This document shows, in pieces, positions 5,785-49,634 of a DNA stretch of 64,000 nucleotides (position 1 is its first letter; every line of letters starts with the position of its first letter). The position numbers and the translations under genes were made by a program. This stretch comes from Ricinus communis (Eukaryota; Streptophyta; Magnoliopsida; Malpighiales; Euphorbiaceae): contig NC_063256.1 in assembly GCF_019578655.1 (NCBI RefSeq), positions 29,994,342 to 30,058,341 of the forward strand, written 5' to 3'. A model generated the notes under the pieces. The model did not search any database, was not told the origin of the DNA, and saw nothing but the letters and a program-made list of their open reading frames with translations.

Positions 5785-6720
5785 ATGAGACTCTTTGGGA
5801 CTTGATTAAATCTAGCACATAGACAAACGTTATACATGATATCAAGTGTAGAGGTGATTAAGTATAAAAGTGAACCGATCATACCTCTATAGAACTTTTC
5901 ATTTGTAATCTTATCTCTCTCATCTTTGTCCAATTTAGTTATGACACCCATGGGTGTTTTGGCTACTTTCCAACCACCCATCTCAAATTTATTTAGAAGT
6001 TCCTCTATGTACTCGGATTAGTTGATAAAGGTTTCATTGATAAAGGTTTCATCCTTGCTTTGCTTAATTTGGAGACCAAGAAAGAATTTGAGCTCTACTA
6101 TCATGCTCATCTTAATTTTCTGGTCATGAACTTAGCAAAATCCTCATAAAGCAATTCATTAGTAGCAGCAAATAGAATGTCATCAACATAAATTTGCACA
6201 ATAAGAATGTTATGTTTGTGCCTTTTTACAAACAAAGTAGTTTTAACTTTTTCTTTTAAAAAATTATTTTCAATAAAAATTGAACTAAGCCTTTCATACT
6301 AAGCTCTAGGAGCTTGTTTCAAATCATATAAGGCTTTAGTTAAAATAAACACATGATTTTAAAATTTGTGACTTTCAAATCTAGAAGGTTGTCAACATAT
6401 ACTTCCTCTTTAATAAAACTATTTAAGGAAGCACTTTTCACATCCATTTGAAATAATTTAAAATTCATGTGAAATGCAAAAGCTAAAAAAATTCTAATGG
6501 CTTCTAATCTAACAACCGAAGCAAAGATTTCGTCATAGTCAATTCCCTCCTCTTGGTTGTAGCCTTTTGCAACCAATCTAGTTTTGTTCCTTATAATGGA
6601 ACCTTGCTCATCTAACTTATTTCTAAGTACCCATTTGCATCCAATAATTTGGTGGTCTTTAGATATAGGAACAAGTTCCATACTTTGTTTATATCAAATT
6701 GGTTGAGTTCATCTTGTATA
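5785..6720 (-). pseudogene. Copia reverse transcriptase domain, degraded
   Basis: Reverse transcriptase of the Sirevirus-like Pol. The minus strand reads [20 protein letters not shown], then [20 protein letters not shown] and [20 protein letters not shown], all classic copia RT blocks. The catalytic YVDD is encoded at 6179-6190. A final block with GMIGSLLYLITSTLDIMYNV lies at 5800-5910. Stops and frameshifts separate the blocks. The [17 protein letters not shown] wording is what I would expect of a Sirevirus. Confidence 0.88.
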
Positions 6721-6823
6721 GTAATCACCCAACTTTCATCAGTTAGAGCCTTATCAATAGTTCTTGGCTCAAATTAAGAAACAAATGCTATATTATTCAT
6801 TTTCACAAATTTAGAACGAGTAC

Positions 6824-8118
6824 TTACACCTTTTGAAAGATGTCCAATGATTTGAGTGGGTGGATGATCCTTCTTGAGATTCCATTCCTTGGGAAGATTT
6901 TCTGACTCCTCAATGGATTGGTTTCCTTGAGTTGCATCATGACTTGGTTGGCTTTCTTGATTATCCTTAGTGAGTTCTTCAATCTCTTTTGATGGATTAT
7001 TAGATTAACTTTGAGCTCCTCAAATGCACCTATAAGATCATTCATACAAATACATTTTCCAAGATCAACCTTACTTGATTCATCAAATACAACATTCATA
7101 GACTCTTCAACTATTAAGGTTAGTTTGTTAAAGACTCTATAAACTTTGCTTGATGTGGAATAGTCTGGGAAGATTCTTATGTCTGTTTTGGAGTTAAGAT
7201 TTTCAAGATTTTTCTTCGTATTTAAAATATAACATTTGTATCCAAATACTCTAAAATATGAGACCTTAGGTTTTCTTCCTTCATAGCTTATAAGATGTTT
7301 TATTAAACAAAGGTCTTTTGAAAAATCTATTTGTAACATAATAACTAATGATAACGGTTTCCACCCAAAGGTAAGAAGGAAGTTTATACTCATTGAGCAT
7401 TGTTCTAGCCATTTCCACTAGAGTATTTTTCTCTTTACAACTCTATTTTGTTGTGGCGTCCTAGGAGATGAAATGTTATGTAAAATACCAATTTCATCAC
7501 AAAGTGATTACTTTTAAATCATTTTTCATGATCACTTCTAATTGAGAAAATCAAATACCTTTTTCCATTTTGAATACGTTTTGTAAAATTTTTAAAAACA
7601 TTAAAGGTTTTATTCTTATGAGCTAGAAAACTAACTCAAGTAAATCTAGAGTAGTCATCAACAATAAGAAATGTATATGACTTTCCTCTCAAACTAGCTA
7701 CTCTAGTTACTCTAAACAAGTCCATATGAAGTAATTGGAATGGTGTAGAAGTACTTATAAGGTTCTTCGACTTGAATGATGATAAGTGTCGTTTTCCCAT
7801 TTGACATGGGTCATACGGTTTGTTCTTGATGACCTTCACTTTAGGAAGTCTACTTGCTAGTTCCTCCTTAGCTAATTTTTGGAGAAGCTCCATACTTGCA
7901 TGTCCAAGTCTTCTATACCATAGCCAAGATTTATCATTAATAGAAACAAAGCACTTGAAGAATTGGTTAGTAACTTTTTGTTGGTCAATTGAATAGGTAT
8001 TGCCACTTATTTCTCTTTTGAGCATTACTTTGTCATCCACTAGGGTATTGACAAAGCATCTATCCGAGTCAAAAGTGACCTTATTACCTTTGTCATACAA
8101 TTGACTTACACTTAACAA
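6824..8118 (-). pseudogene. Copia integrase (GAG-pre-integrase, core and C-terminus), degraded
   Basis: Integrase of the Sirevirus-like element, which inserts cDNA into the genome. At 8118-7636 the frame reads MLSVSQLYDKGNKVTFDSD, then LWYRRLGHASMELLQKLAKE and a zinc-binding end PCQMGKRHLSSFKSKN, then the start of the core, MDLFRVTRVASLRGKS...FLIVDDYSRFT. The canonical catalytic Asp context MDLFGP has become MDLFRV. The second part (7393-6824) carries the C-terminal PKVSYFRVFGYKCYILN block and a low-conservation linker towards RT. The sequence between 7400 and 7630 is frame-disrupted. Confidence 0.85.
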
Positions 8119-8254
8119 ATTATGCTTTAATTCATCAACTAGGAAAATATTACCAATAAAACTTGACTATTCTTACCAATAGAACCAATGCCAATTACCT
8201 TACCCTTGGCATCAATTACCAAATGTGACTTTGCTTCCATCATAGTTTTTCACA

Positions 8255-8325
8255 TTTACAAAGAGGTCCTTATCTCCCGTCATATGCCTTGAACATTTAC
8301 TATCAACATACCAAAGATTTGTGCT
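8255..8325 (-). pseudogene. Copia aspartic protease remnant
   Basis: The minus strand reads WYVDSKCSRHMTGDKDLF, matching the Sirevirus protease signature in which a DSG triad is followed by CSRHMTG. Here the catalytic DSG is DSK, which should abolish activity. It sits between the second zinc knuckle and integrase, as expected. Confidence 0.7.
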
Positions 8326-8361
8326 TGTGGACTTAAGACACACCTATAAAGAAAAATCAAC

Positions 8362-9400
8362 TCACTTAATTTTAGGTACCCAAACAAGGTTGGGTCCTTG
8401 GAGATTAGCCTTGGAAGAGTCATTCAAGAAGAGATGCATCTTTCTTATTTTGCATTTGATGTTTATATGGCCAACCTTCATGCAATAGTGGCAAATGTCC
8501 TTTAGTTTTAAAGAAGAATGAGAATCAGTCTTCTTCACCACTTTTTCTTGAGGTTTAAACCTTAGTTTATTTACCATATTGTTACACATGCATAAGCAAA
8601 GTTTGTTAATTTTTATTTACCTATACATGTATGCATGCTTTATTCCTTTTGGCTTAGCCTTAGAAACTTGGGTGCCTTCCTTTCTTCTTTTGAGTAGGAG
8701 GTCTAGTCTGTGCTTTAGCTTTTGAAGCTCCTTTAAAAGTTCTTTCAATTATTGGTGGTTGAATGGCCTTCATAAAAGTAGTTTCGTTGGATGTTGCAGA
8801 TGTGGATGGGGATGCTCCATTGAATCCAAGTACATGTCTCACAAGGTGTGGTTTTTGAGATACAACTAGTGTATCAAGAGACTCTTTCCCTTTATGAAAC
8901 TTGGAGACTAAACTCCTAAGTTCTTCAACTTCACTTTTCAAAGTGTTATTCTCTTTAAGTAATTCTTCATTTGAAACCTCATTCAATGATTTCCTCAATT
9001 CTTCATTGGAAGTTTTAAGAAAAGTAACTTCTTTCTTTAAAAGCTCAAGTTCTTTTTCTAAGTTGGAGGATTCATTTTTATGAAGATTTAACTCCAATAG
9101 AATGTTTTGTAAAATCTCATCCTCATCATCCACTATATCATCACCAAAAAAATGACTAGATAGACAGGAAGAAGATGAATCACAAGAGTGAGAAGTAGAG
9201 CATACTTATATGAATCCTCAATGTCAGCCATGAAGTAAAGGTTGGCTTCTATCATCTCTATCACTCTCCATATTGGAGGTTTGAGGATGCATTACTCCAA
9301 GTAGCATTCAGGCCTTTATTCTTTTCTTTGTCTCCCTTATTTCTTTTTAGATATTTGGGACAATCCGATTTGATGTGTCCTTACATTCACAATAAGTAAC
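8362..9400 (-). pseudogene. Gag of the Sirevirus-like element, N-terminus missing
   Basis: Structural nucleocapsid protein. From upstream: a damaged first zinc knuckle near 9345-9390 (CEC..HIKSDCPKYLKR, one base short); a long acidic/lysine heptad-like stretch at 9133-8850 (NLEKELELLKKEVTFLKTSN and similar) predicting a coiled coil; a basic tail; then a second knuckle CHYCMKVGHINIKC at 8480-8440, an intact C-x2-C-x4-H-x4-C. Only ~220 bp separate the PBS from the first knuckle, so most of the usual N-terminal Gag is deleted. Knuckle, coiled coil and second knuckle in this order support the Sirevirus assignment. Confidence 0.78.
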
Positions 9401-9616: not shown

Positions 9617-9949
9617 TTATCCTTCAAAACGAAGAAGGAGGGTTGAATTGGTGACTTTAATTCGCAGAATAAAATTGAAGTAGACAAGTACAAGGATCAC
9701 AAATACAATGATAAGGAAATGAAATAAGAGTTAGGGTTAGAGAAATCGACAAAAGAGATTTATAGTGGTCGGGATACGTCCACTTCTCAAGATCACACTT
9801 GAATATTTCACTATAACCAAATTTTATTATAAAACCTTTTCATTTTAGCAAGCTCACCCACAACTTAATGTTTTAATAAGATAACACTAAACTTCTTCCC
9901 TTAGTGAACCAATCTCTAACTAAGTCCCTTAACCCTTGAGTTTTCATGG
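9617..9949 (-). repeat. 5' LTR of the Sirevirus-like element, first part
   Basis: Matches 1812-2160 of the other LTR (GAAGAAGGAGGGTTGAATTG, then the CCACTTCTCAAGATC block) and stops abruptly at the Athila-1 insertion, where AAACT marks the target site. It resumes at 21337. Confidence 0.88.
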
Positions 9950-9954
9950 AAACT
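9950..9954. repeat. Target-site duplication AAACT, left copy (Athila-1)
   Basis: Directly abuts the TG of the left Athila-1 LTR. The same pentamer abuts the CA end of the right LTR at 21332-21336. Confidence 0.92.
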
Positions 9955-11391
9955 TGATGGGCTCTTTATGCAACCTACACCTAAGGCAGTGAACCTACCG
10001 ATGCAGTCTAGCACTAATGGCGAGTATCAAGGTCGTATTTCTCGGGAAAGCGAAAGCCCAGAGTTACTTCTTTGTTCTTTGTTATATTAACCTAAAATGG
10101 ATGATGATAATTTCTAAACTAACTATTAACTACAAGCTAAGTTCTGAGGGAGATGCATGAGTAATTGATAAATGAAATAATCAAGACAAGAAGACAAACC
10201 TAAAGGAAATCTAAACTAGTTGGCAACCGAACAAAAGATAAAGGATCGGTGAGTCTAATTATGCTACCCGTGGATTTACTTAATCAATTCGGTTTCTCTC
10301 TCGAGATAACCGAATTCCTAAACCTAATAACCTAAAGTTGGAATCTCTTCCTAACGATTGATTCTTAAAATAGCATTAAGCTTTAATCCGCCTCTATTAA
10401 GCTTTGTTAATTCTTAATCCGGCTAGTTAATTATCCTTATCTCTAAGCGATTATTAACCAGTTCTTGTTATTCAAAATTCCAATTGCCAAACGGATTTCT
10501 CAATCTCATAAAGCAATCTAAACATCACAATTCACAACGTCTCATGAATAATGCATAATCTTATTAATACTGAAAACAAGAAGAATACAAAACCAACTCA
10601 AACAATCCAACAATATAATATCAAGCCAACATAGTAAAGAAACCCCAATGGATTAAATTAGTCTAGCTAAACATGTTCATGTTTAAAACAATCTAGGAAA
10701 TCAATTACAATGAAAGAATAATGAAAATAAAACATGTACACCCTTTTCTCTCGAATTGGATGAACAACTCCAAATCTGGATCTACACTTTGATTAATCTC
10801 CCAAACTGCCTCTTGAATTGCTTCCACTACGGTTTTGCACTCGGAACCTTGCGATTCCGGGATTCTTACTCCTTGCAACTCTCTTTCGCACTCAATACTG
10901 TGCAGAAACCAAACCAGCCGCTAGGGCTCTATGTCACTCCTTTTTCCTCTCTCTAAAAGAACTCAAAATTGCCCATATACTTGATTTAGCACACCGAGTC
11001 CAGTGATGATTCAAGACGGCCGAGTCCGTGCAAAGGTCAACTGCGGAGTCCACAGGCCGACTCCTTCCAAGCCGTGCCCAAGCCGAGCCACCACAGTCGG
11101 CCGGAGGCCGTGGTGGCTACCAAGTCGCATTGAAATGGCACAATTAGGGATAGCCTCTTAGTAATTCAGCACGAGTCCGTGCTCAACCCTCGGGGTGCTA
11201 GTTCTCACCCAATTTGATGGATTTTGGTCCGTAATCACACGTATTTCCCTCAATTATTGATGGTGTCCTTCGAAAATGACCTGAAACGAGAAAGGAAACA
11301 AAAGACAGGTGATTCTAACATAAAACGGGATAATCATGCATAAAAATGTAAACAATCGGGCATGAAAACATGTGTATTATGATGCTTATCA
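9955..11391 (-). repeat. 3' LTR of Athila-1
   Basis: Begins TGATGGGCTC and ends GATGCTTATCA. Nearly the same as 19881-21331, with the most differences (small indels) in the GC-rich CCGAGTCCGTGC part around 10990-11180. On the minus strand this follows the PPT. Confidence 0.95.
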
Positions 11392-11404
11392 AATTACCCC
11401 ACAC
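11392..11404 (-). other. Polypurine tract of Athila-1
   Basis: The minus strand reads GTGTGGGGTAATT directly against the LTR. The GTGTGGGG form is typical of Athila/Tat elements. Confidence 0.8.
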
Positions 11405-11648
11405 TTAAGCTATTGCTTGTCCTCAAGCAATTAACAACTCACCCCATAAAACTGCAGTTAGCAATTCCTTTCAGTTTATGCCCCTAGTCCACAACAGAGA
11501 GTATTCAACACATCTCAAAGGATACTCAATCATAAATCAAATTACAAATCATTAACAAAGAATGGAAATAATATTAATGCATGAGTAACTTAAATGACAA
11601 CTTAACACAAACATCATGAACCAATGCCTCATAGGGATCACTCAAGTC

Positions 11649-12616
11649 GAGGTACTTATTCCTGAAAAATGATGCGAAATCGAGATTGATTCGGTGGATT
11701 CTTTTGTTACAGGAATTTGATGTCGAGATCAAGGATAAGAAAGGGCGCAGAGAATCTGGCAGCGGACCATTTATTGAGATTGGAAAATCCTCACTTGGAT
11801 GCACTTGATGAGACGGCCATAGACGATCGATTTCCGGGAAGAACATTTATATGTCACCGTATACACCGATACTCCCTGGTTTTCGGATTACGCTAACTAT
11901 TTGGTTGCTAGGGTTCTACCAAAGGGTATGACTTATCGAAAGAAGAAAATCTTCACGATTTGAAATACTATATTTGGGAAGACCCTTTTGTTTAAAGTAT
12001 GTGCAGATCGGGTGATTCGGCCGTTGTGTATATGGCGAGGAGACTCTCTAAATATTGAAGCAACGCCATGAGGGACCCACTTGGAGGTCATCAAGCAGCA
12101 AACCATACAATGAGGAAGGTGCTAGAGGCGGGGATTCTATTGGCCTACGCTCTTCCAAGATGCACGGAAATTTGTTCAGGTTTGTGACCCTTGCCGCCAA
12201 GCAGGTAATATCTCTTCTCGTGATGAGATGCCCCAAACTGGTGTGCAAGTCGTTGAGATTTTTGATGTTTGGGGCATCGACTTCATGGGACCCTTTCCCT
12301 CTTCGTATGGTAATAAGTACATTCTGGTTGCTGTTGAATATTTCTCTAAGTGGCCTGAAGCTCAGGCTGTAGCCACTGACGATGCCAGGGTTGTCTGTAG
12401 GTTCCTTAAGCGATTGTTTGCTAGGTTTGGCATACCTAGGGCGCTTATTAGTGATAGAGGAACACATTTCTGTAACGCCCAATTAGAGAAAGTACTTAAG
12501 CGGTACGGAGTTACTCATCGATTCTCTACTCCCTATCACCCCCAGACTAGTGGGCAGGTTGAGGTAACTAATAGGGGTATTAAACGTATTTTAGAGAGAA
12601 CCGTTAGTACCAGTAG
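11649..12616 (+). pseudogene. Inverted copy of the Athila-1 RNase H/integrase segment
   Basis: On the plus strand this ~968 bp region encodes the end of RNase H and the first two thirds of integrase. It is the reverse complement of 14901-15866. Visible blocks are [60 protein letters not shown] and [20 protein letters not shown]. They hold the first and second catalytic Asp and the Glu region in one open frame from 12228 to about 12640. Its core is less damaged than the minus-strand copy, which has lost the frame in the same places. It is ringed by the element's own 3' sequences (11405-11648 and 12617 onward), so it lies inside Athila-1. The mechanism is not visible; template switching during reverse transcription is one option. 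Confidence 0.88.
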
Positions 12617-12652
12617 TGGGCGCTTATTAATGAATTTTTGATCTCTCAAGGT

Positions 12653-13264
12653 CTACAATTGAGGTATAGGAAAACAATTGATTAAGTGTGTGTCTTGGAA
12701 TTGAGTCCAAAAATCATCCCCCGAGATTTCTTGTTTAGTCCATAATCCCAAATGCATGCCAAATTGTGGGACCGACATCGAGAACTCCCTTCCCCCAAGC
12801 CTGAAATAAATTGCATCAGGCTGATGCCAGTTTGTGATCTGTTGCTGCAGGAAGAAGGTGCTGAGGAACTCGATCGTAAGCTCACGGTAGGTTGGCTCAA
12901 TGATGTCAAAGAATCTCGCATACGGCAGAGTCTCGAACAGTGTGTGCATATCTTGAGCTAATCCCACTCTCTCTAGGGATGTGAAGTCTATGCAACGGCC
13001 CGCCATCACTTGCTTCCATCTCATGACTTGGAATCTACTTTCATTGTCTGCATTAGGGAATGTCCACAATGGATGACGGCCAGTGTGGATGGATTCACAG
13101 TAGTGCTTTCCGAGGTCGGACTATTTGTTGTGGTAGAGGTGGAAGTCATGGTCTTTGGTTCGGGCTGTGGAGGAAGACGTTCCTTCACCACGCGATCACT
13201 TGCTGGTAGCGACGAGTTTCAGTTGCTTTCTACGAGATTTATCGCGGTCCGTCATATCACCTAA
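12653..13264 (-). pseudogene. Athila env-like ORF, 5' part only
   Basis: The minus-strand frame (13069-12653) reads RFQVMRWKQVMAGRCIDFTS, then VGLAQDMHTLFETLPYARFF and LGGREFSMSVPQFGMHLGLW. It closely matches the Athila-2 segment at 35611-35273. The style (helical head, then 'F.LGG.EF.MSVPQFG..LGLW') is that of the ATHILA ORF-1/env-like family. Sequence at 13070-13264 continues the N-terminal part in other frames. The C-terminal half, present in Athila-2 at 34001-33618, is absent because the inverted integrase copy begins at 12616. No catalytic function is known for this ORF. Confidence 0.7.
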
Positions 13265-13796
13265 TACAACGAATTATTAGTTTTTTGTAAGAATTCAAGT
13301 TAATGAAAGAAATAATCTACCGAATCAACAGCATAATGATTATACTTCGACTAACTAAAAACTTGTATAAACTAATAAACCGATACATACCAATCTAATT
13401 TATCATGAACCAGCAATTGCAATTTAAGTTTAAACATTATTCACGCTTTGCATGCTGTAGGCACATTTTATTTCCACCAAAATCCCACACTTATCATTTT
13501 CATAACCGACTACACCACAAACACAACAACTAATGTAAATTAACCTAACCAAGGTCATATGGTTACAATATAAAGCCACCAAGATATCCTAGCATGTCCT
13601 AACAAGAGTATATGTATAAAATAGAAGTCAAATCATAATAAAAAAAATATAAGGCAACAAATGAAGGGACTTAGCTGAGTTCCCTGAGGAAAGTGAGAAG
13701 GGTGAGATAAGGGTATAAGAACAACACCTTTGAGCTAAGAAAAATAAAAGGGAAGCAAAATTTTCGGAGGCCTCCCCTTCTTATAGGCACGTGTTC
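13265..13796. other. AT-rich spacer of Athila-1, 3' of integrase
   Basis: No coding region recognised. It is similar in layout to 35880-36430 of Athila-2, for example in the phrase 'ccacacttaacattttatt' type sequence. It lies between the env-like ORF and the hairpin modules. Confidence 0.5.
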
Positions 13797-14032
13797 AGCA
13801 CGGGTGAGGGTAAGGCCGTGCTGACCAGCACGGCTAGGACTCAACCCGTGCTGAGCCTTTAGCCTTATTGTGATGCACCTTGGCACGGGCAATGGCATGG
13901 CCGTGCTAATGAGCACGGCATGGGGTTTTATCCCGTGATGCCTTCGGAAGCCGTGACAAATTATTCTTTATCCTTCAACACGGGCTTGACTCTGGCCGTG
14001 CTCCTCAGCACGGCCTGGTGTTCTAGCCCGTG
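13797..14032. repeat. Three two-tier hairpin modules in Athila-1
   Basis: Modules at 13797-13852, 13884-13937 and 13979-14032. Each reads, in order, CACGGG, 9-11 bases, GCCGTGCT, a 4-base loop, AGCACGGC, 10-12 bases, CCCGTG. The inner arms (for example GCCGTGCT at 13815 and AGCACGGC at 13827) are perfectly complementary, as are the outer arms. Each module could fold into a ~55-nt hairpin with an internal loop. Only the arms are conserved; the bases between them differ, as expected if pairing is what is kept. The region lies between integrase and the env-like ORF. Degraded versions lie in Athila-2 (36450-36505, 36722-36775) and in its LTR (40904-40959). Confidence 0.85.
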
Positions 14033-14353
14033 ATGGCCACGAAAACCGTGGTGAAACGGAGTGTTTCTGGGCTTTCCTTTGCTATCTCGAGTCGCCTTGC
14101 CCTCTACCTGTATTTAACACATATATGCATGTAATTAGATCATAAAATAAGTAGATATGGTCAAACGGAAGAGTCCGTCCTCTCCGATTATATAAGTCCA
14201 AAAAATTAAAAACCCTAATTACTGTTAAGCAACTATAATAAAGTCAAATGAAAATGATGAAACAATCACAACTAATTAAAAACATAAAAGTATAATCCAA
14301 GTCGAATGTACAGAAGTGCTTATTTGCAGAGTCTTAAGCTTGACTCATTCGAA

Positions 14354-15525
14354 TCACCCTTCCTGTGCATACAAAGCCAGGTCAACTCGTTCCTCACTAT
14401 CCAACGAGTTACAATGGTATCGCTTTAGCCGATGGCCGTTCACTTTGAAGTTTCCCTTCTCTGGATGATGCAACTCTACCACTCCATATGGAAAGACTTG
14501 CCCGATCTGAAATGGTCCAGACCAACGAGTCTGCAGCTTTTCGGGAAACAGACGAAGGCGAGAGTTGTAAAGCAACACTAGATCCCCAACCTAAAACTCC
14601 TTAGGCTCACGAATCCTTTGATCATGCCATTTCTTAGTCCTTGCTTTGTAAGTTGAGGAGTTTTCGTATGCCTGTTGGTGCCACTCATCTAGCTCACTTA
14701 GCTGCCATTGTCGCTCCTTACCTACAGAATCAATATCAAAGTTACAAGTTCTAAGGGCCCAAAGTGCCCTATACTCTAACTCAACAAGCAAATGACATGA
14801 CTTTCCATAAACAAGGCGATAGGGCGTAAAACCTATAGATGTCCTAAAAGCAGTCCTAAACGCCCATAATGCATCATCTAACTTAAGAGTCCAGTCCTTC
14901 CTACTGGTACTAACGGTTCTCTCTAAAATACGTTTAATACCCCTATTAGTTACCTCAACCCGCCCCACTAGTCCCGGGGGTGATAGGGAGTAGAGAATCG
15001 ATGAGTAACTCCGTACCGCTTAAGTACTTTCTCTAATTGGGCGTTGCAGAAATGTGTTCCTCTATCACTAATAAGCGCCCTAGGTATGCCAAACCTAGCA
15101 AACAATCGCTTAAGGAACCTGCAGACAACCCCGGCATCATCAGTGGCTACGACTGAGCTTGAGCCACTTAGAGAAATATTCAACAAAGCAACCGGAATGT
15201 ACTTATTACCATACGAAGAGGGAAAGGGTCCCATGAAGTCGATGCCCTAAACATCAAAAATCTCAACGACTTGCACACCAGTTTGGGGCATCTCATCACG
15301 AGAAGAGATATTACCTGTGCGCTGGCAAGGGTCACAAGCCTGAACAAATTTCCGTGCATCTTGGAAGAGCGTAGGCCAATAGAATCCCGCCTCTAGCACC
15401 TTCCTCATTGTATGGTTTGTCGCTTGATGACCTCCGGTGGGTCCCTCATGGCAGTGCTTCAATATTTGGGTCTCCTCGCCATATACACAACGGCGAATCA
15501 CCTGATCTGCATATACTTTAAACAA
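14354..15525 (-). pseudogene. Athila-1 integrase, degraded
   Basis: Integrase of Athila-1. The minus strand shows the zinc-binding HHCC segment (HCHEGPTGGHQATNHTMRKV, then [15 protein letters not shown]), the core with [37 protein letters not shown] and [19 protein letters not shown], then the C-terminal part ending LPEKLQTRWSGPFQIGQ with GNFKVNGHRLKRY. Frames change near 15234, 14968 and 14580. The block around 15160-15200 has lost the reading seen intact in the inverted copy. Residues downstream of about 14901 have no counterpart in that copy. Confidence 0.92.
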
Positions 15526-15587
15526 AAAGGGGTCTTCCTAAATATAGTATTTCAAATTAGCAAAGAATTTCTTCTTTTGCTGATAAG

Positions 15588-16355
15588 TCATACCCTTTGG
15601 TAGAACCCTAGCAACCAAATAGTTAGCGTAATCCGAAAACCGGGGAGTATCGCGGTATACCGAGTGACATATAAATGTTCTTTTGGAAATCGATCGTCTA
15701 TGGCCGCCTCATCAAGTGCATCCAAGTGAGGATTTTCCAATCTCGATAAATGGTCCGACGCCGGATTCTCTGCCTTCTTATCCTTGATCTCGACATCAAA
15801 TTCCTGTAATAAAAGAATCCACCGAATCAATCTCGGTTTCGCATCATTTTCGGGAATAAGTACCTCAACGCCGAGTGGTCCGTGAAGACAATGGTTTTGG
15901 AGAGAACGAGGTATGATCTAAACTTGACGAAGGCGTAAACAACGTACCAATAACTCCTTCTCCTGTGGTGGTGTAGTGTTCCTGGGCTCCCGTTAAAGTC
16001 TTGCTAGCGTAGTAAATGGGTTGGAACTTCTTTTCAATCCTCTATCCAAGCACAGCCCAATCGCATAATCACTAGCATCGCACATCGGTTCAAAGAGCCC
16101 CCAATCGGGAGAAACCATGATTGGGGTCAGAGTTAGAAGTTTCTTAAGTAACTCAAAAGCTGCCAAGCATGCATCATCAAAAATAAAAGGTACATCTTTA
16201 ACTAACAATTGAGTGAGAGGCCTAGCAATCTTAGAGAAATCTCTAATAAATCTCCTATAAAACCCTGCATGGCCCAGAAAACTCCTAACAGCCTTAACAG
16301 AACTAGGAGGAGGTAGCTTAGATATTACTTCTACCTTAGCTCTATCCACCTCCAT
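15588..16355 (-). pseudogene. Athila-1 RNase H domain, degraded
   Basis: Connection and RNase H region. It starts with VISKLPPPSSVKAVRSFLGH and AGFYRRFIRDFSKIARPLTQ, the conserved RT/RNase H junction of gypsy elements, then CDASDYAIGLCLDRGLKRSS with the first catalytic Asp of RNase H, and ends with [30 protein letters not shown]-like text near 15760. Two frame breaks lie near 15993 and 15830. Confidence 0.88.
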
Positions 16356-16980
16356 CCCGACCGAGAGATCTTATGCCCCAAAACAATCCCCTCTCTCACC
16401 ATGAAATGGCATTTTTCCCAGTTTAGTACCAAGTTAGCCTCAATACACCTAGCTAACATGCGCTCAAGGTTTGCCAAACAAAGAGAGAAAGAATTACCAA
16501 AAATAGAGAAGTCATCCATAAATACCTCCATAGACTCCTCAATCATGTCCTCAAAAATAGCCATCATGCACCGCTGAAATGTAGCCGGTGCATTGCACAG
16601 TCCGAATGGCATCCGTCTATAAGCAAATGTCCCATAAGGGCAGGTGAAGGTAGTCTTCTCTTGGTCCTCAGGTGCAATAGGAATCTAAAAGTAACCTGAA
16701 AAGCCATCAAGAAAACAATAAAACATGTGACCTGCTAAACGTTCAATCATCTGATCAATAAAAGGAAGAGGGAAATGGTCCTTCCGAGTTGCATCATTAG
16801 ACCTATGGTAATCAATGCAAACTCGAAAGTCATACCGTCCGAAGTGGATCAGCTCATCCTTCTCATTCCTTACCACTGTGATGCCTCCCTTCTTGGGTAC
16901 AACTCGCACAGGACTAACCCACGAATCGCCGAAATGGGATATATTAAACTGCATCAAGAAGTTTAATTACCTCCTTCTTT
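16331..16980 (-). pseudogene. Athila-1 reverse transcriptase, degraded
   Basis: The minus strand reads SWVSPVRVVPKKGGITVVRN, then RVCIDYHRSNDATRKDHFPL, PFIDQMIERLAGHMFYCFLD, and after a stop near 16686, MPFGLCNAPATFQRCMMAIF and the catalytic VFMDDF (16508-16525). CIDY, MPFGL-NAPATFQR and F-x-DD identify gypsy RT, and the wording is that of the Athila lineage. The stop between YF and the MPFGL block and a frame change near 16331 inactivate it. Confidence 0.93.
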
Positions 16981-17163
16981 ACCACTTCTTTCATGTTCGG
17001 ATTGAGTCGTCTTTGAGGCCGAACAACCGACCAAACTGTCCTCCAATGAAATCTTATGAGAGCGAAACTTGGATTTATGCCCGGGATATCTCGCTATATT
17101 GAAAGCAAAGGCCTTCTTGTACTTCCTTAGAACTTCCAACAAAGCATGGCTTTTTCTTCGGAG

Positions 17164-17999
17164 TTAGATCGGTACCGCTATGATTACCGGTAAGCGCTTC
17201 TCTTCATCCAGGAAGGCATAAACCAAGTGGCTCAGAACTCCTTCCAGTTCTAAGACTGGTGGGTCCTTAAATGAAGTCTTTACTGCACCCCGACTGTCAA
17301 GAAAAAGATAGGGATCGGTTGACAAGCTCGTACCGAAGCCAATAAAACAGCGAGTTGCTCCAACACTTGCTCGTTGCACAACTCCTCCTCATCCTCAGCT
17401 ATTGCTACTTGCAAAGGGTTAGAACATAAAATTTCTTGCAAATGGGACTCAACCACATCATCAATCACATCAATAGAATATACAGTATTATTATAGTCCA
17501 GTGACTGTCTCATGGAAGTGGCTAGGTCAAAGGTAATGGTCTCATCACCAACTCTAAGCTTAAGCTTTCCATCGCTTACATCGATAACAGCCCTCGATGT
17601 AGCTAGGAAAGGCCTACCCAGGATAAGAGGCACAGTGCTCTCACCCTCCATATCCATTACCACAAAATCCACAGGAAAGATAAATTTATCTACCTTTACA
17701 AGTACATCTTCAACAATACCTCTAGGAATTTTAACAGTTCTATCTACTAACTGAACACTCATCCTAGTAGGCTTAGGTTCATGCAACCCTAATTTGGCAA
17801 ATAAACTAGTGGGCATTAAGTTAATGCTAGCTCCTAAATCAGCCAATGCACCACTAATTGATAAATCACCAATCATACAAGGGATAGTAAAACTCCCTGG
17901 ATCTCGTCGCTTGAGTGGCAGTTTGTTTTGGAGAATAGCTGAACACTCCTCATTAAGCACCACCTGACCAAGATCCTCCAACTTCCTCTTGTTGCTCAA
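17164..17999 (-). pseudogene. Athila-1 protease region
   Basis: Aspartic protease that would process Gag-Pol. A 239-codon open frame (17999-17280) has SFTIPCMIGDLSISGALADL leading into ADLGASINLMPTSLFAKLGL, the retropepsin active-site loop in its Athila form (DLGA in place of D-T/S-G), followed by LILGRPFLATSRAVIDVSDG, the conserved flap-to-C-terminal ILGRPFL motif. It overlaps a second frame (17379-17164) that continues towards RT. Gag and protease lie in the same broken coding stretch. Confidence 0.88.
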
Positions 18000-18103
18000 A
18001 ATCTCCTTTAAAAACTTGGCGCATTTCCAAGACCGTGAAATTGCCTCAACAAAAGGTAAGTTAATTTTTAGGCACGCTTAAATAAGTCAAGAAACTTACT
18101 GTA

Positions 18104-19709
18104 TTGCTTGTCCACCTTATCCCGCCTCAACCTTGCAGGATATGGAACCAAAGTGATGCTCCCGCATGGCTCTTTTGCTCGTATTCTTTCATTCTCTCAT
18201 TCTCTACCACCTCAAGGTCCGGTCCTTCCTTACTGGCTCGACTGCACGATTGTATTATCCTTATCGGCCTAAAGGCGAAGAACCGGTCAATTTCTTACCT
18301 GAACGCAAGGTGATAGCCTTGCAATGCTCCCTCGGGTTTGACTCATGAGTGCTAGGGAGGCGATCCTGGAGGTCTCTCCGAAAGCATCTTAGAAATTTGG
18401 CCAATTTGAGTCTCCAAGTTCGAATCGAGGCCTGCCGATTCCTAAGTGCACTATCACCGGAATCTCGCTTCAGAGACGTCACAAACTTCATCATAAGCTC
18501 CTCTAAATTTGACTTCTTTTCTTGTGGAGGAGGAGCTTGTGCATGCCCAAATTGGTTGTTGTACGTTGATGAAGTCTTTGAAAACTGGCGGACCGGGCAT
18601 TATTGTTCCTCCAACCGAAATTGGGATGATTGTGCCATCCAGGGTTGTATGTATTGATGTAAGGGTTATTCACTGGGGCATTCCCCATATAATCAACTGT
18701 TCAACATCGGAAGATATAGCGAATTAGATGGAAAACTAGTAGAAGATGAAGCAAACATACCTCCCATGATTGCTTAGCATAATGCGGGCCACCATAAAAC
18801 TTGCGACCAACGTCACGATGAACCGACATCCGGAGTTGGTCGATCTTCTTGGCTAGAAGCTCCACTTGAGCTCGCCAAGGCTGCCGAGTCCACTTGGTTG
18901 ACCACTCCCGCCTTCTGGTCGGCTCCTAGAGGATTGCCAACGATAGTTGTTCATGGCCATTTCCTCTATCAAGTTATGAGCCCGCCGCTCATCGCTTTCA
19001 CCGCAAAGATCCACCATCGCCTCGTTGCAAGGTTCAACCCGTATGAAGGTCCGAACTGCATCCACACCGGCAATCCGTGATGTGGGCGGCATCTCAAAAG
19101 ATCTTTAAATCTCTCCCATGCATCGTACATGCTTTCATCATCAAACTGCACAAAAGAAGATATGTCATTTCTAAGTTTAGCAGTTTTAGCGGGAGGAAAA
19201 TACTTATATAAAAAATTTTCGGCCAACGCCTTTCAGGTAGTGATCGTCTGTTGTGGAAGAGATTGCAGCCATCTCTTTGCTCTGTCCCTCAAGGAAAATG
19301 GAAATAATCTCAGCCGAATGGCATCATCGGTTGTTCCATTTATTTTGAATGTGTCACAAATCTCCAAAAAGTTAGAGATATGTGCATTGGGATCCTCGCT
19401 GGGCAATCCTCCAAACTGCACGCTTTGTTGTATCATCTGGATAACATTGGCCTTTATCTCAAAATTGTTGGCCGCTATAGCAGGTCTGACTATACTCGTT
19501 TTCGTCCCATCTAAAGAGGGTCGAGCAAAATCGTACATAGTCCTTTGATCATCATCGGCCTGGGGTTTGAGGTTCTCCATCGCGTCAGTTCCTTGAACCT
19601 GAACCGTAACTCTGTCCTCCTCCTTAATCGCCCGCAAACGCTGCCTCAATAATCCGGAGAGCCCGGTCGATAAGGGTGCTATTGGATCAGGGTTAGAGCT
19701 CCTGGTCAT
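18104..19709 (-). pseudogene. Athila-1 Gag, degraded
   Basis: Capsid/nucleocapsid precursor. The likely start is at 19709 (MTRSSNPDPIAPLS). The capsid core reads [20 protein letters not shown], then [20 protein letters not shown] and LFPFSLRDRAKRWLQSLP, a retrotransposon Gag signature. After a frameshift near 19230 it continues with KYFPPAKTAKLRNDISSFVQ, DDESMYDAWERFKDLLRCRP and an Asn-rich YNPGWHNHPNFGWRNNN segment (18690-18600). The zinc knuckle (18783-18806) reads RKFYGGPHYAKQS, so both N-terminal Cys positions are lost. It is followed by ESNPREHCKAITLRSGKKL, a typical Athila Gag end. Confidence 0.9.
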
Positions 19710-19856
19710 ATACTACCTGAAACCGACAACCAAACAACCACCAATCAATCAAAAAAAAAAATAACAATAAATGATAATAAAAATAAAGAATAAATGAATA
19801 AACAAATAATGACTAAATTAACACAAAAACAATTCACTCTAATTCACCGTTACTGT

Positions 19857-19874
19857 TCCCCGACAACGGCGCCA
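19857..19874 (-). other. Primer-binding site of Athila-1
   Basis: The minus strand reads TGGCGCCGTTGTCGGGGA, six bases from the LTR, a PBS form common in Athila/Tat elements and usually assigned to tRNA-Asp. The assignment is from memory. Confidence 0.8.
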
Positions 19875-19880
19875 AAAACT

Positions 19881-21331
19881 TGATGGGCTCTTTATGCAAC
19901 CTACACCTAAGGCAGTGAACCTACCGATGCAGTCTAGCATTAATGGCGAGTATCAAGGTCGTATTCCTCGGGAAAGTGAAAGCCCAGAGTTACTTCTTTG
20001 TTCTTTGTTATATTAACCTAAAATGGATGATGATAATTTCTAAACTAACTATTAACTACAAGCTAAGTTCTGAAGGAGATGCAGGAGTAATTGATAAATG
20101 AAATAATCAAGACAAGAAGACAAACCCAAAGGGAATCTAAACTAGTTGGCAACCGAACAAAAGATAAAGGATCGGTGAGTCTAATTATGCTACCCGTGGA
20201 TTTATTCTTAATCAATTCGGTTTCTCTCTCGAGATAACCGAATTCCTAAACCTAATAACCTAAAGTTGGAATCTCTTCCTAACGATTGATTCTTAAATTA
20301 GCATTAAGCTTTAATCCGCCTCTATTAAGCTTTGTTAATTCTTAATCCGGCTAGTTAATTATCCTTATCTCTAAGCGATTATTAACCAGTTCTTGTTATT
20401 CAAAATTTCAATTGCCAAACGGATTTCTCAATCTCATAAAATAATCTAAACATCACAATTCACAACGTCTCATGAATAATGCATAATCTTATTAATACTG
20501 AAAACAAGAAGAATACAAAACCAACTCAAACAATCCAACAATATAATATCAAGCCAACATAGTAAAGAAACCCCAATGGATTAAATTAGTCTAGCTAAGC
20601 ATGTTCATGTTTAAAACAATCTAGGAAATCAATTATAATGAAAGAATAATGAAAATAAAACATGTACACCCTTTTCTCTCGAATTGGATGAACAGCTCCA
20701 AACTGGATCTACACTTTGATTAATCTCCCAAACGCCTCTTGAATTGCTTCCACTATGGTTTTGCACTCGGAACCTGCGATTCCGGATTCTTACTCCCCGC
20801 ATAACTCTCTTTGCACTCAATAATCATGCAGAAACCAACCGAACCACCCTTGGCTCTATGTCACTCATTTTCCTCTCTCTAAAAGAACTCAAAATTGCCC
20901 ATATAGTTGATTCAGTACAACCGAGTCCAGTTGTGATGATTCAAAACACCGAGTCCGTGCAAGGTCAACTGTGGAGTCCGTCAGGCCGACCTTCCAAGCC
21001 GTGCCCAAGCCGGTGCTGAGCCACCACAGGCCGTGTTGGAGGCCGTGGTGGCTACGAAAGTCGTACTGAAATGGCACAATTGGGGATAGTTTCAGATTCA
21101 AGACGCCGAGTCCGTGCCGTGCTCAACCCTCGGGGTGCTAGTTCTCACCCAATTTGATGGATTTTGGTCCGTAATCACACGTATTTCCCTCGATTATTGA
21201 TGGTGTCCTTCGAAAATGACCTGAAACGAGAAAGGAAATAAAAGACAGGTGATTCTAGCATAAAATGGGATAATCATGCATAAAAATGTAAACAATCGGG
21301 CATGAAAACATGTGTATTATGATGCTTATCA
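19881..21331 (-). repeat. 5' LTR of Athila-1
   Basis: Begins TGATGGGCTC and ends GATGCTTATCA. It closely matches 9955-11391, and the AAACT duplication abuts its right end. Confidence 0.95.
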
Positions 21332-21336
21332 AAACT
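21332..21336. repeat. Target-site duplication AAACT, right copy (Athila-1)
   Basis: Identical to 9950-9954. Confidence 0.92.
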
Positions 21337-22224
21337 CAACAACAAATTTCTTGTCTTTTTAATCCTAGGCTTATACAAAATAATTTTTAGTTTTAGTTGA
21401 ATGAAAATATTCAACTTAATACACTATAGAGAAAGAGTTTAGTGTAGAAAGTCGAGTAAAAAATTTACAAAAGTTTTGGTATTAAAGAATTCACACACCT
21501 ATGTTTAATGTCTTTATGAGAGATATTTATACTCATACCAACCCCTAAAGAATATTACAAATAGCTCATAGCTTATTAATTGTAAACCTTGATGATTTGG
21601 CAAAAAGTAACTTTATATCTGGAAGCGCTCTCACACTTTCTGAATAGAGTCATTGGGACTCCAATGGCTCTAGGCACGTAGCACTACTTTAGTGATTGTT
21701 TCTATAATGGTCACTAACTTAACATTAGTTGTGAATTCCGCCCTCGCGCTTTAAAAGCGCCCTCGTGGAGGTCTTGTCCATGCTCTGAAAGCGCCCTCAC
21801 AAAGGTCTTGTCTGCACTCAAAAGCACCCTCATGCTAGAGGTCTCGAAACCTTCTCCCATATTCTACATTTCTCTTTGGTTTTAAGCGCCCTCATGCTCT
21901 GGATGCGTTTTCTCATTTCTCAAAGAGAAAACACTTTGACTTCCAGGTGCTCTGATGTGGTTGGGGATCTTCCAAGGAGTATATACACATATATTGTTAG
22001 CTTGACCAAATGAAAACCCCCTCGTGCTTCTTGAGCGCCCTCGTGCTTCTTAGGCGCCTTCGCGCTTTATGGATTTTCCTAAATTATTCTTGAGAAGCTC
22101 AAAACACTTTTGTCCAATCCTGATCCCTTAAAACACAATCATATAAACACTTAAATAACTAATTAACAACACTCAATTTGAATGTTAAGGTCAAAATAAA
22201 GATCAATTAACCCTTAGGTTAACA
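21337..22224 (-). repeat. 5' LTR of the Sirevirus-like element, second part
   Basis: Continues the LTR interrupted at 9949 and matches 2165-2961, ending CCCTTAGGTTAACA. It has more copies of the GCGCCCTCGTGC motif than the other LTR (about eight between 21720 and 22070), so the motif array has expanded or contracted. Confidence 0.88.
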
Positions 22225-25138: not shown

Positions 25139-26270
25139 TCACACCACGACATATAGGTCCGTGACCTAAGACTAGGAATGCGCGAGCTTGGGCCGTCGTA
25201 GTAAGTCTTACTGCACTAAAAATTCAAATAAAAAACTAATAAAATAAAATTAATCATGACTGACATGCCATAAATAATTCTAACTGGTCTTTATAACATC
25301 CCACGTCCATCATGGACCAGAATAATCACAACAAATTTAAAAGTACCCTACTGCGAAAGGTCTAGAATATAAAATAACTTAAAATATAGAAGTACAAATT
25401 ATTTATAAAAAGCCCGATGAGGACGAAGTCGAACTGTCACAATGCAGGATGGCGAAGAACTCTAACTGTCACTTGAAAAATAAAACTGAGACTGTCAGTC
25501 TCGGGAGTGAGTTAAAATCAAATAATCTTGTGACTATTGCAGTCTTCTCAGAAAATAATAATTATTACATCAGTATAACATATGCCATGTACATCCAATA
25601 CGAGTCATACTATAATCATACCATAATCTTAAAGTTAAAATATATTTTAAATTTGTGGGACGAATAACTCAATAGAACCCTAACCCTAATTACTAGCAGC
25701 CTTTAGGCTCTCTTAATTCCAACAGGTCTGGTGCCCAAAGAGCAAAGCTCGACCAAGGTCCTTACATCCAGCCAAAATACTTGATTCCCAACTAAGTCGG
25801 CGCCCAAAGAGCATTGTTCGAATTGTGGACCTTTCTCCCAAATAACTTTCATGCCCGAGAGTTATACTCAACCAAGGCAAAAATCCATAATAACCTTGTT
25901 ACCTGTCTTTAATCATTACTAGTGCGCACACGGTCCTGATGTAACCCATCAGGTGGCATGTTCTATTAAAGCCTCATCCCAATATCACAATCAACACATA
26001 TATAATAATTATAGTCTAACATAATCATCCAACACATACCGAAATAAAGATTTAGAAACTCGGGAAAAGCAAACATGCAATTTGTATGTGGAAATAATAA
26101 TAATGATTGTATTAATATTACATTAAGTATCAAAATAACGATATAATATTACTGATAATAATATTAAAATTATTCTTAGTAATTAATAATTAAATGAAAT
26201 TATTTATATCATGCGATACTAATAATCATATTTAAACACAATTTTAAAGTAGCATTATTAAATTTAGACT
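25139..26270 (-). repeat. Inverted partial Tekay LTR running into the assembly gap
   Basis: Reverse complement of about 41618-42743: for example the CTAATTACTAGTAGCCT-type block, the CTCGGGAGTGAGTTAAAATC block and the final AGGTCCGTGACC near 25162. The outer end at 25139 corresponds to the GTGACA terminus of the plus-strand LTR. The orientation is opposite to the Tekay coding region beyond the gap, so this cannot be its 5' LTR in a simple element. Confidence 0.85.
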
Positions 26271-26770
26271 NNNNNNNNNNNNNNNNNNNNNNNNNNNNNN
26301 NNNNNNNNNNNNNNNNNNNNNNNNNNNNNNNNNNNNNNNNNNNNNNNNNNNNNNNNNNNNNNNNNNNNNNNNNNNNNNNNNNNNNNNNNNNNNNNNNNNN
26401 NNNNNNNNNNNNNNNNNNNNNNNNNNNNNNNNNNNNNNNNNNNNNNNNNNNNNNNNNNNNNNNNNNNNNNNNNNNNNNNNNNNNNNNNNNNNNNNNNNNN
26501 NNNNNNNNNNNNNNNNNNNNNNNNNNNNNNNNNNNNNNNNNNNNNNNNNNNNNNNNNNNNNNNNNNNNNNNNNNNNNNNNNNNNNNNNNNNNNNNNNNNN
26601 NNNNNNNNNNNNNNNNNNNNNNNNNNNNNNNNNNNNNNNNNNNNNNNNNNNNNNNNNNNNNNNNNNNNNNNNNNNNNNNNNNNNNNNNNNNNNNNNNNNN
26701 NNNNNNNNNNNNNNNNNNNNNNNNNNNNNNNNNNNNNNNNNNNNNNNNNNNNNNNNNNNNNNNNNNNNNN
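26271..26770. other. Assembly gap (500 N)
   Basis: Exactly 500 Ns, a conventional placeholder length, so the true size is unknown. It falls between an inverted Tekay LTR and the Tekay pol region. Confidence 0.99.
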
Positions 26771-30239: not shown

Positions 30240-31692
30240 GGATAGGCTATTTGTGTAGCTAAAATCTAAGGCAGTGAACCTATCGATGCAGACTGGCATA
30301 AATGGTGAGTATCAAGATCCTATTCTCGAGAAAGGGTGATCCTATAACTACTGCAGCATCTTATGTTATCTATCCATAACAAAATCGATGAAGTTACTAT
30401 GCTATGATTAAATATAAACAAGCAGTTAACTAAGTGTCAAATAATCTGAAAGGATTTAGGAAAACAATTGAAGAAAAAAGCAAAACCAAAAGAGACCTAA
30501 GCTAGTTGGATTTTAGTGAAGATAGAGATTATATTAATTACCAATTGCAATTATCCGTAGACGAATTCTTAACTGAATTCGGTTTTCCTCTCGAGATAAC
30601 CGAACTCCTAAACCTAATAACCTAAAGTTGGAATCTCTTCCTAATGATCGATTATTAAATTAGCATTAAGCTTTAACCCGCCTCTATTAAGCTTTGTTAA
30701 TTCTTAATCCGGCTAGTCAATTACCCTTATCTGTAAGTGATCATTAACCAGTTCTTGCTATTCAAATCTCTAATTACTAAATGAATTTCTCAATTACATA
30801 AAGCAATCTAAATACCACAACTCACAATGTTTCATGAATAATGTGATTTCTCATTAATAATGAAAGCAAGAGGATATGAGCATTGATAATCAAAATCTCA
30901 TAAGCATTAGAATCAATCTAACAATATAGGAACCGTACTAGGTTTGAAAAATTTAGTTACTCATACTAATAAGCAACACAAAGTAAAGAACAAATTCAGA
31001 AAAGTAAATTGAAGGCATGTATACCCTTCTTCTTCAAGTTGGATGAAAAACCCTAAATTTCCAATTCAGAATGATGAACCCTAATTTGCCTCTTGAATGC
31101 CCCAAATCTCCTCTTGATCTTCAATTTGATGTTAAAACCAATGTAATCCTTCCTTCAATAGATGGAATAGTCTTTTAAGGTCGAGTATTGAAGTATGGGA
31201 AAAGATGGCTTATGCTTGTATATGTGAAATCAAGTCAGAAAATCGAACCCCAATTCAATAAATTGTATTTGCCTATATAAATCTCTCTCAAAGACAACAG
31301 TGGTCAAGCCCAGGCTGACAAGATAAGTAGTCCAGCCGTGTTGGACCTCCGCGCCCCACAACTTCAGGCTTTCCCCGCCGCTCCCTCAGCCGAGCCACCA
31401 CGGGCCATGGTGGTTTCGGAAATCGTGCCAAAATGGCACTCTTGAAGGTCAAGTGTCGATGGTTCAGCACGGCCAGAGTCCAGGCCGTGCTCAACCTTGG
31501 AATGCTAGTCCTTGCTCAATTTTGATGGATTCGTCCGAATTGCGCCCGATTTCTACACCGATAATGTCCCTCGATAATGACCTGAAACGTAAAAGGAACC
31601 AAAACACAGGTGATTCTAGCATAAAACAAGATAACTATGCATAAAAATGTAAACAATTGGGCATATAAACATGTATAAAATGATACACATTA
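30240..31692 (-). repeat. 3' LTR of Athila-2
   Basis: Starts GATAGGCTATTTGTGTAGC (the terminal T mutated to G) and matches 39856-41335 throughout, with scattered differences. Confidence 0.93.
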
Positions 31693-31706
31693 AATCACCC
31701 CACACT
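31693..31706 (-). other. Polypurine tract of Athila-2
   Basis: The minus strand reads GTGTGGGGTGATTT against the LTR, the same form as in Athila-1. Confidence 0.78.
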
Positions 31707-34212: not shown

Positions 34213-34217
34213 GTAGT
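34213..34217. repeat. Target-site duplication GTAGT, left copy (solo LTR)
   Basis: Immediately precedes the TG start of the solo LTR; repeated exactly at 35250-35254. Confidence 0.88.
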
Positions 34218-35249: not shown

Positions 35250-35254
35250 GTAGT
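35250..35254. repeat. Target-site duplication GTAGT, right copy (solo LTR)
   Basis: Identical to 34213-34217 and immediately after the CA end of the solo LTR. Confidence 0.88.
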
Positions 35255-39690: not shown

Positions 39691-39831
39691 ACTACCTGAA
39701 ACGGAAAGGCAACAATTAAAGAATACAAGAATAACTACAATAATAAAGAATATATAAAAAATGAAAAGACAAAAAAATAAAAAATGGCTAGATTAACACA
39801 AACACAAATTTACTCTAGTTCACACAAAAGT

Positions 39832-39849: not shown

Positions 39850-39855
39850 AAAATA

Positions 39856-49633: not shown

Positions 49634-49634
49634 T

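What the first reader, a model, noticed from the sequence alone, without database searches (positions are those of the whole stretch)
11649..15866. Athila-1 carries a ~0.97 kb inverted copy of its own RNase H/integrase segment
The plus-strand 11649-12616 is the reverse complement of 14901-15866, with about 2.3 kb between the arms. Both lie inside one pair of LTRs with perfect target duplications, so a minus-strand transcript from the 5' LTR would contain sense and then antisense integrase and could fold into a long hairpin RNA. Long-hairpin loci such as Muk (Mu killer) in maize trigger silencing of related elements in trans. That this copy does so is inference.
Basis: partly seen in the sequence, partly recalled or inferred. 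Interest (0 to 1): 0.88.

Follow-up and report, generated by a model that had tools for sequence, protein, structure and literature searches.

The report
Recombinant retrotransposon with inverted integrase patch
A castor bean jumping element carries a backwards copy of an integrase gene segment at the point where two related element families were spliced together, most likely a copying accident of reverse transcriptase; it could form a hairpin RNA, but nothing here shows that it silences anything.

Summary
The inverted copy is real: 11646-12616 is the reverse complement of 14901-15869 (94.4% over aligned bases), inside a minus-strand Athila element (9955-21331) with a perfect 5-bp duplication. 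The host is very probably Ricinus communis. It is not a simple duplication. The LTR bodies and the next 258 bp resemble one family ("A"); env, integrase and gag leader belong to another ("B"). The inverted integrase lies at the A/B switch, followed by a 12-nt integrase copy and 97 bp of B-family U3. Both junctions are unique among the 40 hits scored for each. The inverted arm is closer to 30 other genomic copies (best 96%) than to its partner (93%), yet common descent of the two arms is not rejected. It is about as old as the insertion. Best explanation: strand switching by reverse transcriptase between two co-packaged RNAs. A 5'-LTR transcript could fold into a roughly 1-kb duplex with a 2.3-kb loop, but Mu-killer-like silencing is untested and unsupported beyond this geometry. 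Genome searches often failed, so several comparisons rest on subsets.

The parts
9950..9954 (.). left target-site duplication AAACT
   Evidence: the other LTR of the same host Copia element (2140-2185) is a close empty site
21332..21336 (.). right target-site duplication AAACT
9955..11391 (-). 3' LTR, mosaic: 9955-10004 B-like (88-100% to 7 B LTRs, 64-72% to 2 A LTRs), 10005-~10900 A-like, ~10955-11391 like B and like copy L090
19881..21331 (-). 5' LTR, same B/A mosaic at its U5 end
11392..11649 (-). 3' internal region, family A (98% to L091 over all 258 bp; 4 of 4 B pieces compared match only the first 54-60 bp)
11646..12616 (+). inverted copy of the RNase H end, integrase zinc domain and integrase core (family B)
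   Evidence: no other scored hit crosses either junction
11646..11649 (.). junction 1: GTCG, shared by the A 3' region and (as GTTG in the partner arm) the integrase end
12617..12629 (+). junction 2: one extra base plus 12-nt templated filler identical to 12439-12450 in the arm
12626..12722 (-). 97-bp fragment of family-B LTR (U3); overlaps the filler by 4 nt and meets env at TCCCCC (junction 3, 12717-12722)
   Evidence: 7 B LTR pieces aligned
12723..13364 (-). N-terminal part of the env-like (ATHILA ORF) gene, family B
   Evidence: PF03078
13365..14900 (-). family-B spacer and end of pol
   Evidence: 90-98% in 8 of 8 B elements
14901..15869 (-). integrase segment in the normal orientation (partner arm)
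16334..16684 (-). reverse transcriptase remnant, PF00078
17283..18077 (-). protease reading frame, PF13650; best database relatives Ricinus communis
19000..19880 (-). start of gag, leader and primer-binding site, family B

Best explanation
Athila-1 is an inter-family recombinant. Its 3' end (LTR plus 258 bp) comes from a family 'A' RNA and the rest from a full-length family 'B' Athila RNA. The inverted integrase is the scar at the crossover. Proposed path, in the direction of first-strand synthesis (+ strand of the window): reverse transcriptase copies the A LTR and A 3' region, switches at about 4 nt of homology onto a strand of antisense polarity and copies about 970 nt of B integrase backwards, hops back for 12 nt, copies 97 nt of B U3, then switches at a 6-nt homology into B env and runs on to the primer-binding site. 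The product is integrated with a 5-bp duplication. Shown: the A / inverted-B / U3-B / B order, the microhomologies, the filler, junctions unique among scored hits, the same mosaic edge in both LTRs. Inferred: that one reverse-transcription cycle with co-packaged RNAs did it. Any RNA hairpin or silencing is a possible by-product, not shown.
For: Family B interior: in 8 of 8 fetched relatives the spacer is 90-98% and env 89-97% similar (env only 202 bp in L076), while in 7 of 8 the LTR is about 68-70% similar to Athila-1's over its first 820-872 bp, and 82-90% over the last 290-450 bp. Of the 39 nearest leader/gag relatives I read the adjoining LTR of 20: 20 of 20 are B-type after base 50 (91-97% in 19, 85% in L106), where Athila-1 is A-type (154/164 to A, 117/136 to B). 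The 258-bp 3' region is 98% A. The inverted piece lies exactly between A and B. 97 bp of B U3 sits at the junction. The 12-nt filler is longer than any match in 2,593 control 20-mers, maximum 11; 0.01 matches expected in the window. Each junction is unique among 40 scored hits. Both LTRs share the mosaic edge and the TSD is intact. Age: inverted arm end branch 0.021, close to those of 5 B copies with measurable LTR pairs (0.012-0.023); LTR-pair identity 93.7% against 94.1-95.6% in those 5. I found no stop or frameshift shared by both arms, so the copied template had an open integrase frame (read by eye).
Against: The partner arm has an end branch of 0.044, twice that of the inverted arm; equal ageing does not predict this. 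The B-type LTR edge is not private: 1 of 16 readable A copies (L114) has it too, so part of the LTR mosaic may be older than Athila-1. The U3 end of the LTR (about 10955-11391) is as close to B as to any A copy seen. Only one A copy (L089/L091) was read through its interior, and its leader resembles Athila-1's too (within an 88% alignment). The eighth relative (C6:6465668, the one closest to both arms) showed no B LTR in the fetched pieces, and L082 and L074 hold inverted A-like LTR pieces nearby that I did not resolve. The copying of an antisense strand is inferred. Arms and one LTR stretch (10819-11202) show many microindels, which weakens the dating. 19 of the 39 leader relatives were not read (one of them, C2:16079706, is B by L079). 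The search for other leader-B/LTR-A elements did not complete in ten tries.
Confidence: 0.6

Rival explanations
1. Post-insertion break repair. A double-strand break in an already inserted element was filled by microhomology-mediated or template-switching DNA repair, which copied integrase and U3 pieces of B elements as filler.
For: Serial short microhomologies and a 12-nt templated filler are equally typical of such repair (recalled). The inverted arm has fewer changes than the partner arm (strictly private columns 6 against 22), as expected if it was patched in later from a younger copy.
Against: It does not explain why the patch lies exactly where A sequence gives way to B, nor why both LTRs are A-like and the interior B. 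Arm divergence is not below LTR divergence: ratio 1.34 (0.86-2.09) over all contexts, 0.97 (0.56-1.66) without CG sites.
Confidence: 0.23
2. Long-hairpin silencing locus that works like Mu killer: a transcript from the 5' LTR folds into double-stranded integrase RNA and yields small RNAs that silence B-family Athila elements in trans.
For: Geometry is right; duplex -1693 kcal/mol, 633 of 985 columns in perfect runs of 21 nt or more. Many possible targets: 38 other scored integrase copies besides the partner arm, 91-96% alike. Artificial ATHILA hairpins with a spacer give 21- and 24-nt RNAs and, for one, non-CG methylation at related elements in Arabidopsis mutants (PMC11410651, passages seen).
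Against: No transcript, small RNA or methylation data. Unique among scored hits, degenerate, loop of 2.3 kb, nested in an old Copia LTR. The CG-site excess in the arms (17/102 against 6/95, Fisher p 0.027) is weak and has other possible causes.
Confidence: 0.07
3. Assembly artefact: two Athila copies joined wrongly, one of them inverted.
For: A 500-N gap lies about 14 kb from the inverted arm; the family looks large (955-1852 first-look candidates, unconfirmed); microindels cluster in the arms and in 10819-11202.
Against: A templated 12-nt filler and a 97-bp U3 fragment at the joint, an intact TSD and the same mosaic edge in both LTRs are not expected from misjoining. The arms differ at 5.6% of aligned bases and by 15 indels, so it is not one contig used twice.
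Confidence: 0.08

Closest known systems
Copy-choice recombinants of plant LTR retrotransposons, e.g. RLG_Quinta A/B lineages in einkorn wheat (PMC11302176, passages seen) and LTR transfer between sub-populations in wheat (PMC9744471, passages seen)
   Same: Families share sequence in blocks, explained there by template switching during replication
   Different: Here the crossover is not clean: it holds about 970 nt of antisense integrase, a 12-nt filler and 97 nt of U3
Mu killer (Muk) of maize (PMC3440606, passages seen)
   Same: Inverted duplication of part of a transposon's catalytic gene, arms of about 1 kb (about 1.3 kb in Muk)
   Different: Muk is a DNA-transposon derivative with genetically shown silencing; here no activity is shown, the spacer is 2.3 kb, and the origin is probably retroviral-type recombination
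Synthetic Cen5-ATHILA5 hairpins in Arabidopsis (PMC11410651, passages seen)
   Same: Inverted Athila segments around a spacer
   Different: Transgenes in an expression vector; ours is natural, about 94% matched, expression unknown
Athila-2 in the same window (30241-41333)
   Same: Related Athila element, same orientation, with an inverted internal segment
   Different: Its inverted segment is an ordinary solo-LTR insertion with TSD GTAGT (34218-35249)

Membership tests
Athila-type Ty3/gypsy LTR retrotransposon | paired LTRs starting TG and ending CA, with 5-bp TSD | tested here: met
Athila-type Ty3/gypsy LTR retrotransposon | protease, RT and integrase domains in that order, plus an ATHILA ORF after integrase | tested here: met
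   PF13650, PF00078, PF17921, PF00665, PF03078 in pieces; frames are broken
Athila-type Ty3/gypsy LTR retrotransposon | primer-binding site for a tRNA (tRNA-Asp recalled for this group) | tested here: inconclusive
   TGGCGCCGTTGTCGGGGA next to the 5' LTR is seen as its complement; pairing to a tRNA is recalled, not tested
Reverse-transcription recombinant of two LTR families | interior from one family, both LTRs from another | tested here: met
   with reservations: LTR read in 20 of 39 leader relatives, and the U5 edge and U3 end of the LTR are B-like
Reverse-transcription recombinant of two LTR families | co-packaging of the two RNAs | not testable with these tools
   needs particle or expression data
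Mu killer-like hairpin silencing locus | inverted duplication of a transposon coding segment that can fold as RNA | tested here: met
Mu killer-like hairpin silencing locus | derived from a DNA transposon with terminal inverted repeats | tested here: not met
   LTR retrotransposon
Mu killer-like hairpin silencing locus | transcribed, makes small RNAs, silences relatives in trans | not testable with these tools
   no RNA or genetic data

The most novel reading that the evidence does not exclude
One reverse-transcription accident between RNAs of a short Athila relative and a full-length Athila made, in a single step, both a chimeric element and a ready-made hairpin against the integrase of the full-length family; hairpins of this kind could arise repeatedly wherever two families share particles and could seed silencing of the autonomous family.
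Probability: 0.06. Interest if true: 0.8.

Novelty: new variant of a known kind. Interest (0 to 1): 0.45.

Why it matters
Recombination by template switching between retrotransposon families is known, but the crossover here keeps a readable record of the polymerase path: two families, a reversed copy about 970 nt long, a short hop and a U3 fragment, joined at a few matching bases. It suggests how an inverted repeat can be born inside a retrotransposon without any later duplication. If such scars were transcribed they would be natural hairpin sources against the autonomous family, which small-RNA data from castor bean could test directly.

Tried and rejected
Rejected: a simple inverted duplication of the element's own integrase as the whole story (30 other copies score above the partner arm; LTR and interior come from different families). 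Rejected: a repeated family feature (no other hit among the 40 scored crosses either junction; 0 of 120 listed integrase relatives, of 7,629 found, hold the junction peptide). Rejected: autointegration, because no LTR end lies at a junction; the U3 piece is internal. Rejected for Athila-2: its inverted segment is a solo LTR with TSD.

My first reading, that 12617-12713 is env, was wrong: relatives place 12626-12722 in family-B U3. My second reading, that the whole LTR mosaic is private to Athila-1, was weakened by L114. The first alignments inflated the differences around indels; dating uses instead.

Led nowhere: viral contigs (9 pattern stretches, none a relative); env protein search (1 candidate, none significant); paper searches for natural retrotransposon hairpins or inverted template-switch scars: no listed title or abstract start described one (the library holds open-licence papers only).

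Dropped before counts: of the 20 copies, 8 went into the tree (11 were already in; L027 matched only 444 bp); 2 of 18 A copies (L118, L124) had no readable LTR edge.
Full report
OBSERVATION. The inverted repeat is present: 11646-12616 against 14901-15869, 2,284 bp apart. Identity is 92.7% by BLAST or 94.4% over 957 aligned bases with 15 indel events; a gap-friendlier alignment gives 38 differences in 955 with 22 indel events. The element runs 9955-21331 on the minus strand, with LTRs of 1437 and 1451 bp and target duplication AAACT. It sits in the LTR of an older Copia element: the flanks 9627-9952 and 21336-22224 align side by side with 1821-2961, and a Copia reverse transcriptase remnant (PF07727) lies at 6343-6693.

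HOST. The window is G000:C1:29994342-30058341 of a 315.5 Mb assembly. Contig lengths such as 36,693,184 (C1) and 29,779,195 (C6) are the lengths given for Ricinus communis proteins. The host is therefore very probably castor bean (inference from matching lengths). Best database relatives of the protease frame are also Ricinus communis proteins.

CONTENT OF THE ARMS. Both hold the integrase core (PF00665) in pieces, with zinc-domain matches. Each arm has its own stops and frameshifts; in the three-frame translations and homologue alignments I found no lesion shared by both, so the duplicated template had an open integrase frame (reading by eye).

NOT CLEARLY A SELF-COPY. A search with the inverted arm scored 40 places of 955 first-look candidates. 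The best non-self place is C6:6465668 (96%); the partner arm is 32nd (93%). In a 39-row tree (2 arms and 37 other copies, all chosen by likeness to the inverted arm) the two arms fall in one 5-row group with L031, L013 and L051 (support 89/88). The tree is star-like; joining the arms as sisters is not rejected (p-AU 0.745, and the joined tree scored 8.0 log units better than the free one). So the arms come from the same small lineage, but self and sibling origin cannot be told apart. The search with the partner arm as query was busy and not repeated.

JUNCTIONS. A 70-bp probe over the right junction scored 40 of 134 candidates: the window matches in full, the other 39 match only up to 12616. 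A 90-bp probe over the left junction scored 40 of 767: the other 39 match only up to 11649. With 701 bp (12300-13000; 40 of 1852 scored) all 39 others end at or before 12616. Only scored candidates were seen, so absence elsewhere is likely but not absolute.

A CHIMERA. Pieces of eight relatives with close integrase show spacer 90-98% and env 89-97% similar to Athila-1. In seven of them the LTR is about 68-70% similar over its first 820-872 bp and 82-90% over the last 290-450 bp; the eighth (C6:6465668) showed no such LTR in the fetched pieces. I call them family B. Beside two of them (L074, L082) lie inverted LTR pieces 86% and 95% like Athila-1's, probably neighbours or nested insertions, not resolved. 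The sequence left of the inverted arm, 11392-11649, is 98% identical over its full length to a different family, A (L091), whereas 4 of 4 B pieces compared match only the first 54-60 bp. Four A copies go on differently after GTCG at 11649. The one A copy read through (C9, L089 and L091) has about 3.3 kb between its LTRs; its interior gives no nucleotide match to gag, pol or env of Athila-1, and its two frames of at least 100 aa match no Pfam family. On the other side of the element the gag and leader are B: 39 other scored hits at 89-96%, leader 92% to L079 and 74-81% to five other B copies. For 20 of these 39 I read the adjoining LTR: all 20 resemble Athila-1 in the first 50 bases (41/47 to 50/50) and are B-type thereafter, where Athila-1 is A-type. 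Among 18 of the 39 A copies, 16 were readable at the LTR edge: 15 have the A-type edge, one (L114) the B-type edge of Athila-1. So some of the LTR mosaic may be older than this element.

THE SCAR. In + strand order: A-like LTR and 258 bp of A 3' region; GTCG overlap (11646-11649; GTTG in the partner arm); 971 bp of integrase in sense; one T; GGGCGCTTATTA (12618-12629), the same 12 bases as 12439-12450 in the arm; 97 bp of B-family U3 (12626-12722); env of B from TCCCCC (12717-12722) on. The 12-base match exceeds the best (11) of 2,593 control 20-mers. The left junction has no such filler (longest match 7, ordinary). Compared with the 5 B copies whose 3' LTR was found in the fetched piece, about 2.5-2.6 kb of env end and 3' region is missing (distances, my arithmetic).

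AGE. Arms against LTRs, by sequence context: ratio 1.34 (95% interval 0.86-2.09) over all sites and 0.97 (0.56-1.66) without CG sites; leaving out the indel-rich LTR stretch 10819-11202, 1.80 (1.02-3.25) and 1.44 (0.74-2.84). The inverted arm's end branch (0.021) fits those of five B copies whose LTR pairs could be measured (0.012-0.023; LTR pairs 94.1-95.6%, Athila-1 93.7% in the same metric). The partner arm (0.044) is an outlier that I cannot explain. The patch is thus about as old as the insertion or older, not clearly younger.

MECHANISM. Minus-strand copy choice during reverse transcription predicts what is seen: both LTRs and the 3' end from one parent, everything upstream from the other, one 5-bp duplication around the whole (mechanism from general knowledge). 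That the inverted piece sits at that very crossover ties it to the same event. The reversed segment needs a template of antisense polarity, for example a nascent minus-strand DNA of the B RNA (inference). Break repair after insertion can make similar microhomology scars, but leaves the LTR and interior mismatch unexplained. Template switching between sub-families is an accepted route in plants (PMC11302176 and PMC9744471, passages seen).

HAIRPIN. A transcript from the 5' LTR carries sense and then antisense integrase. Predicted duplex -1693 kcal/mol, shuffles -360 to -373 (5), control segment -399; perfect runs of 21 nt or more cover 633 of 985 columns, the longest 74. Artificial Athila hairpins make small RNAs in Arabidopsis (PMC11410651, passages seen); there only hairpins of the right family rescued the mutant, which shows the effect is specific. 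Whether this copy is transcribed or diced is unknown. For Mu killer, the passages of PMC3440606 that I saw give a duplication of about 1.3 kb and link silencing to short antisense transcripts, leaving room for minor longer ones.

VERDICT. The structure is best read as a recombination scar in a chimeric Athila, a new variant of a known kind; the silencing role is possible but unsupported.

Noticed in passing
1821-2961, 6343-9205, 9627-9949 and 21337-22224: An older Copia element whose two LTRs (about 78-84% alike) frame the region; Athila-1 is inserted in one of them.
   Followed up: partly
30241-41333: A second Athila (LTRs 90% alike) whose env-like gene is interrupted by an inverted A-type solo LTR at 34218-35249 with 5-bp duplication GTAGT.
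   Followed up: partly
25139-26270 and 41612-42741: A 1.1 kb inverted repeat, 86% alike, framing Athila-2 and other repeats; one arm ends exactly at a run of 500 N (26271-26770), so an assembly cause is possible.
   Followed up: no
10819-11202 and its partner in the 5' LTR: 25 indel events in 365 aligned bases between the two LTRs against 3 in 862 bases next to it, in a G+C-rich stretch; cause unknown (recombination, repeats or consensus errors).
   Followed up: partly
14901-15869: The partner arm has about twice the end branch of the inverted arm (0.044 against 0.021), though both sit in one element.
   Followed up: partly
L114 (C7:16396275-16396625) and L090 (C7:16401000-16404000): An A-family locus with the same B-type LTR edge as Athila-1: an older or parallel A/B LTR mosaic; its full structure was not resolved.
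   Followed up: partly
L082 201-1177 and L074 3-472: Inverted A-like LTR pieces (95% and 86%) close to the 3' ends of two B elements, perhaps nested or neighbouring insertions.
   Followed up: no
49243-57010: Copia-like reverse transcriptase (PF07727 at 54701-55159) between 390-bp direct repeats 90% alike: probably another LTR element.
   Followed up: no
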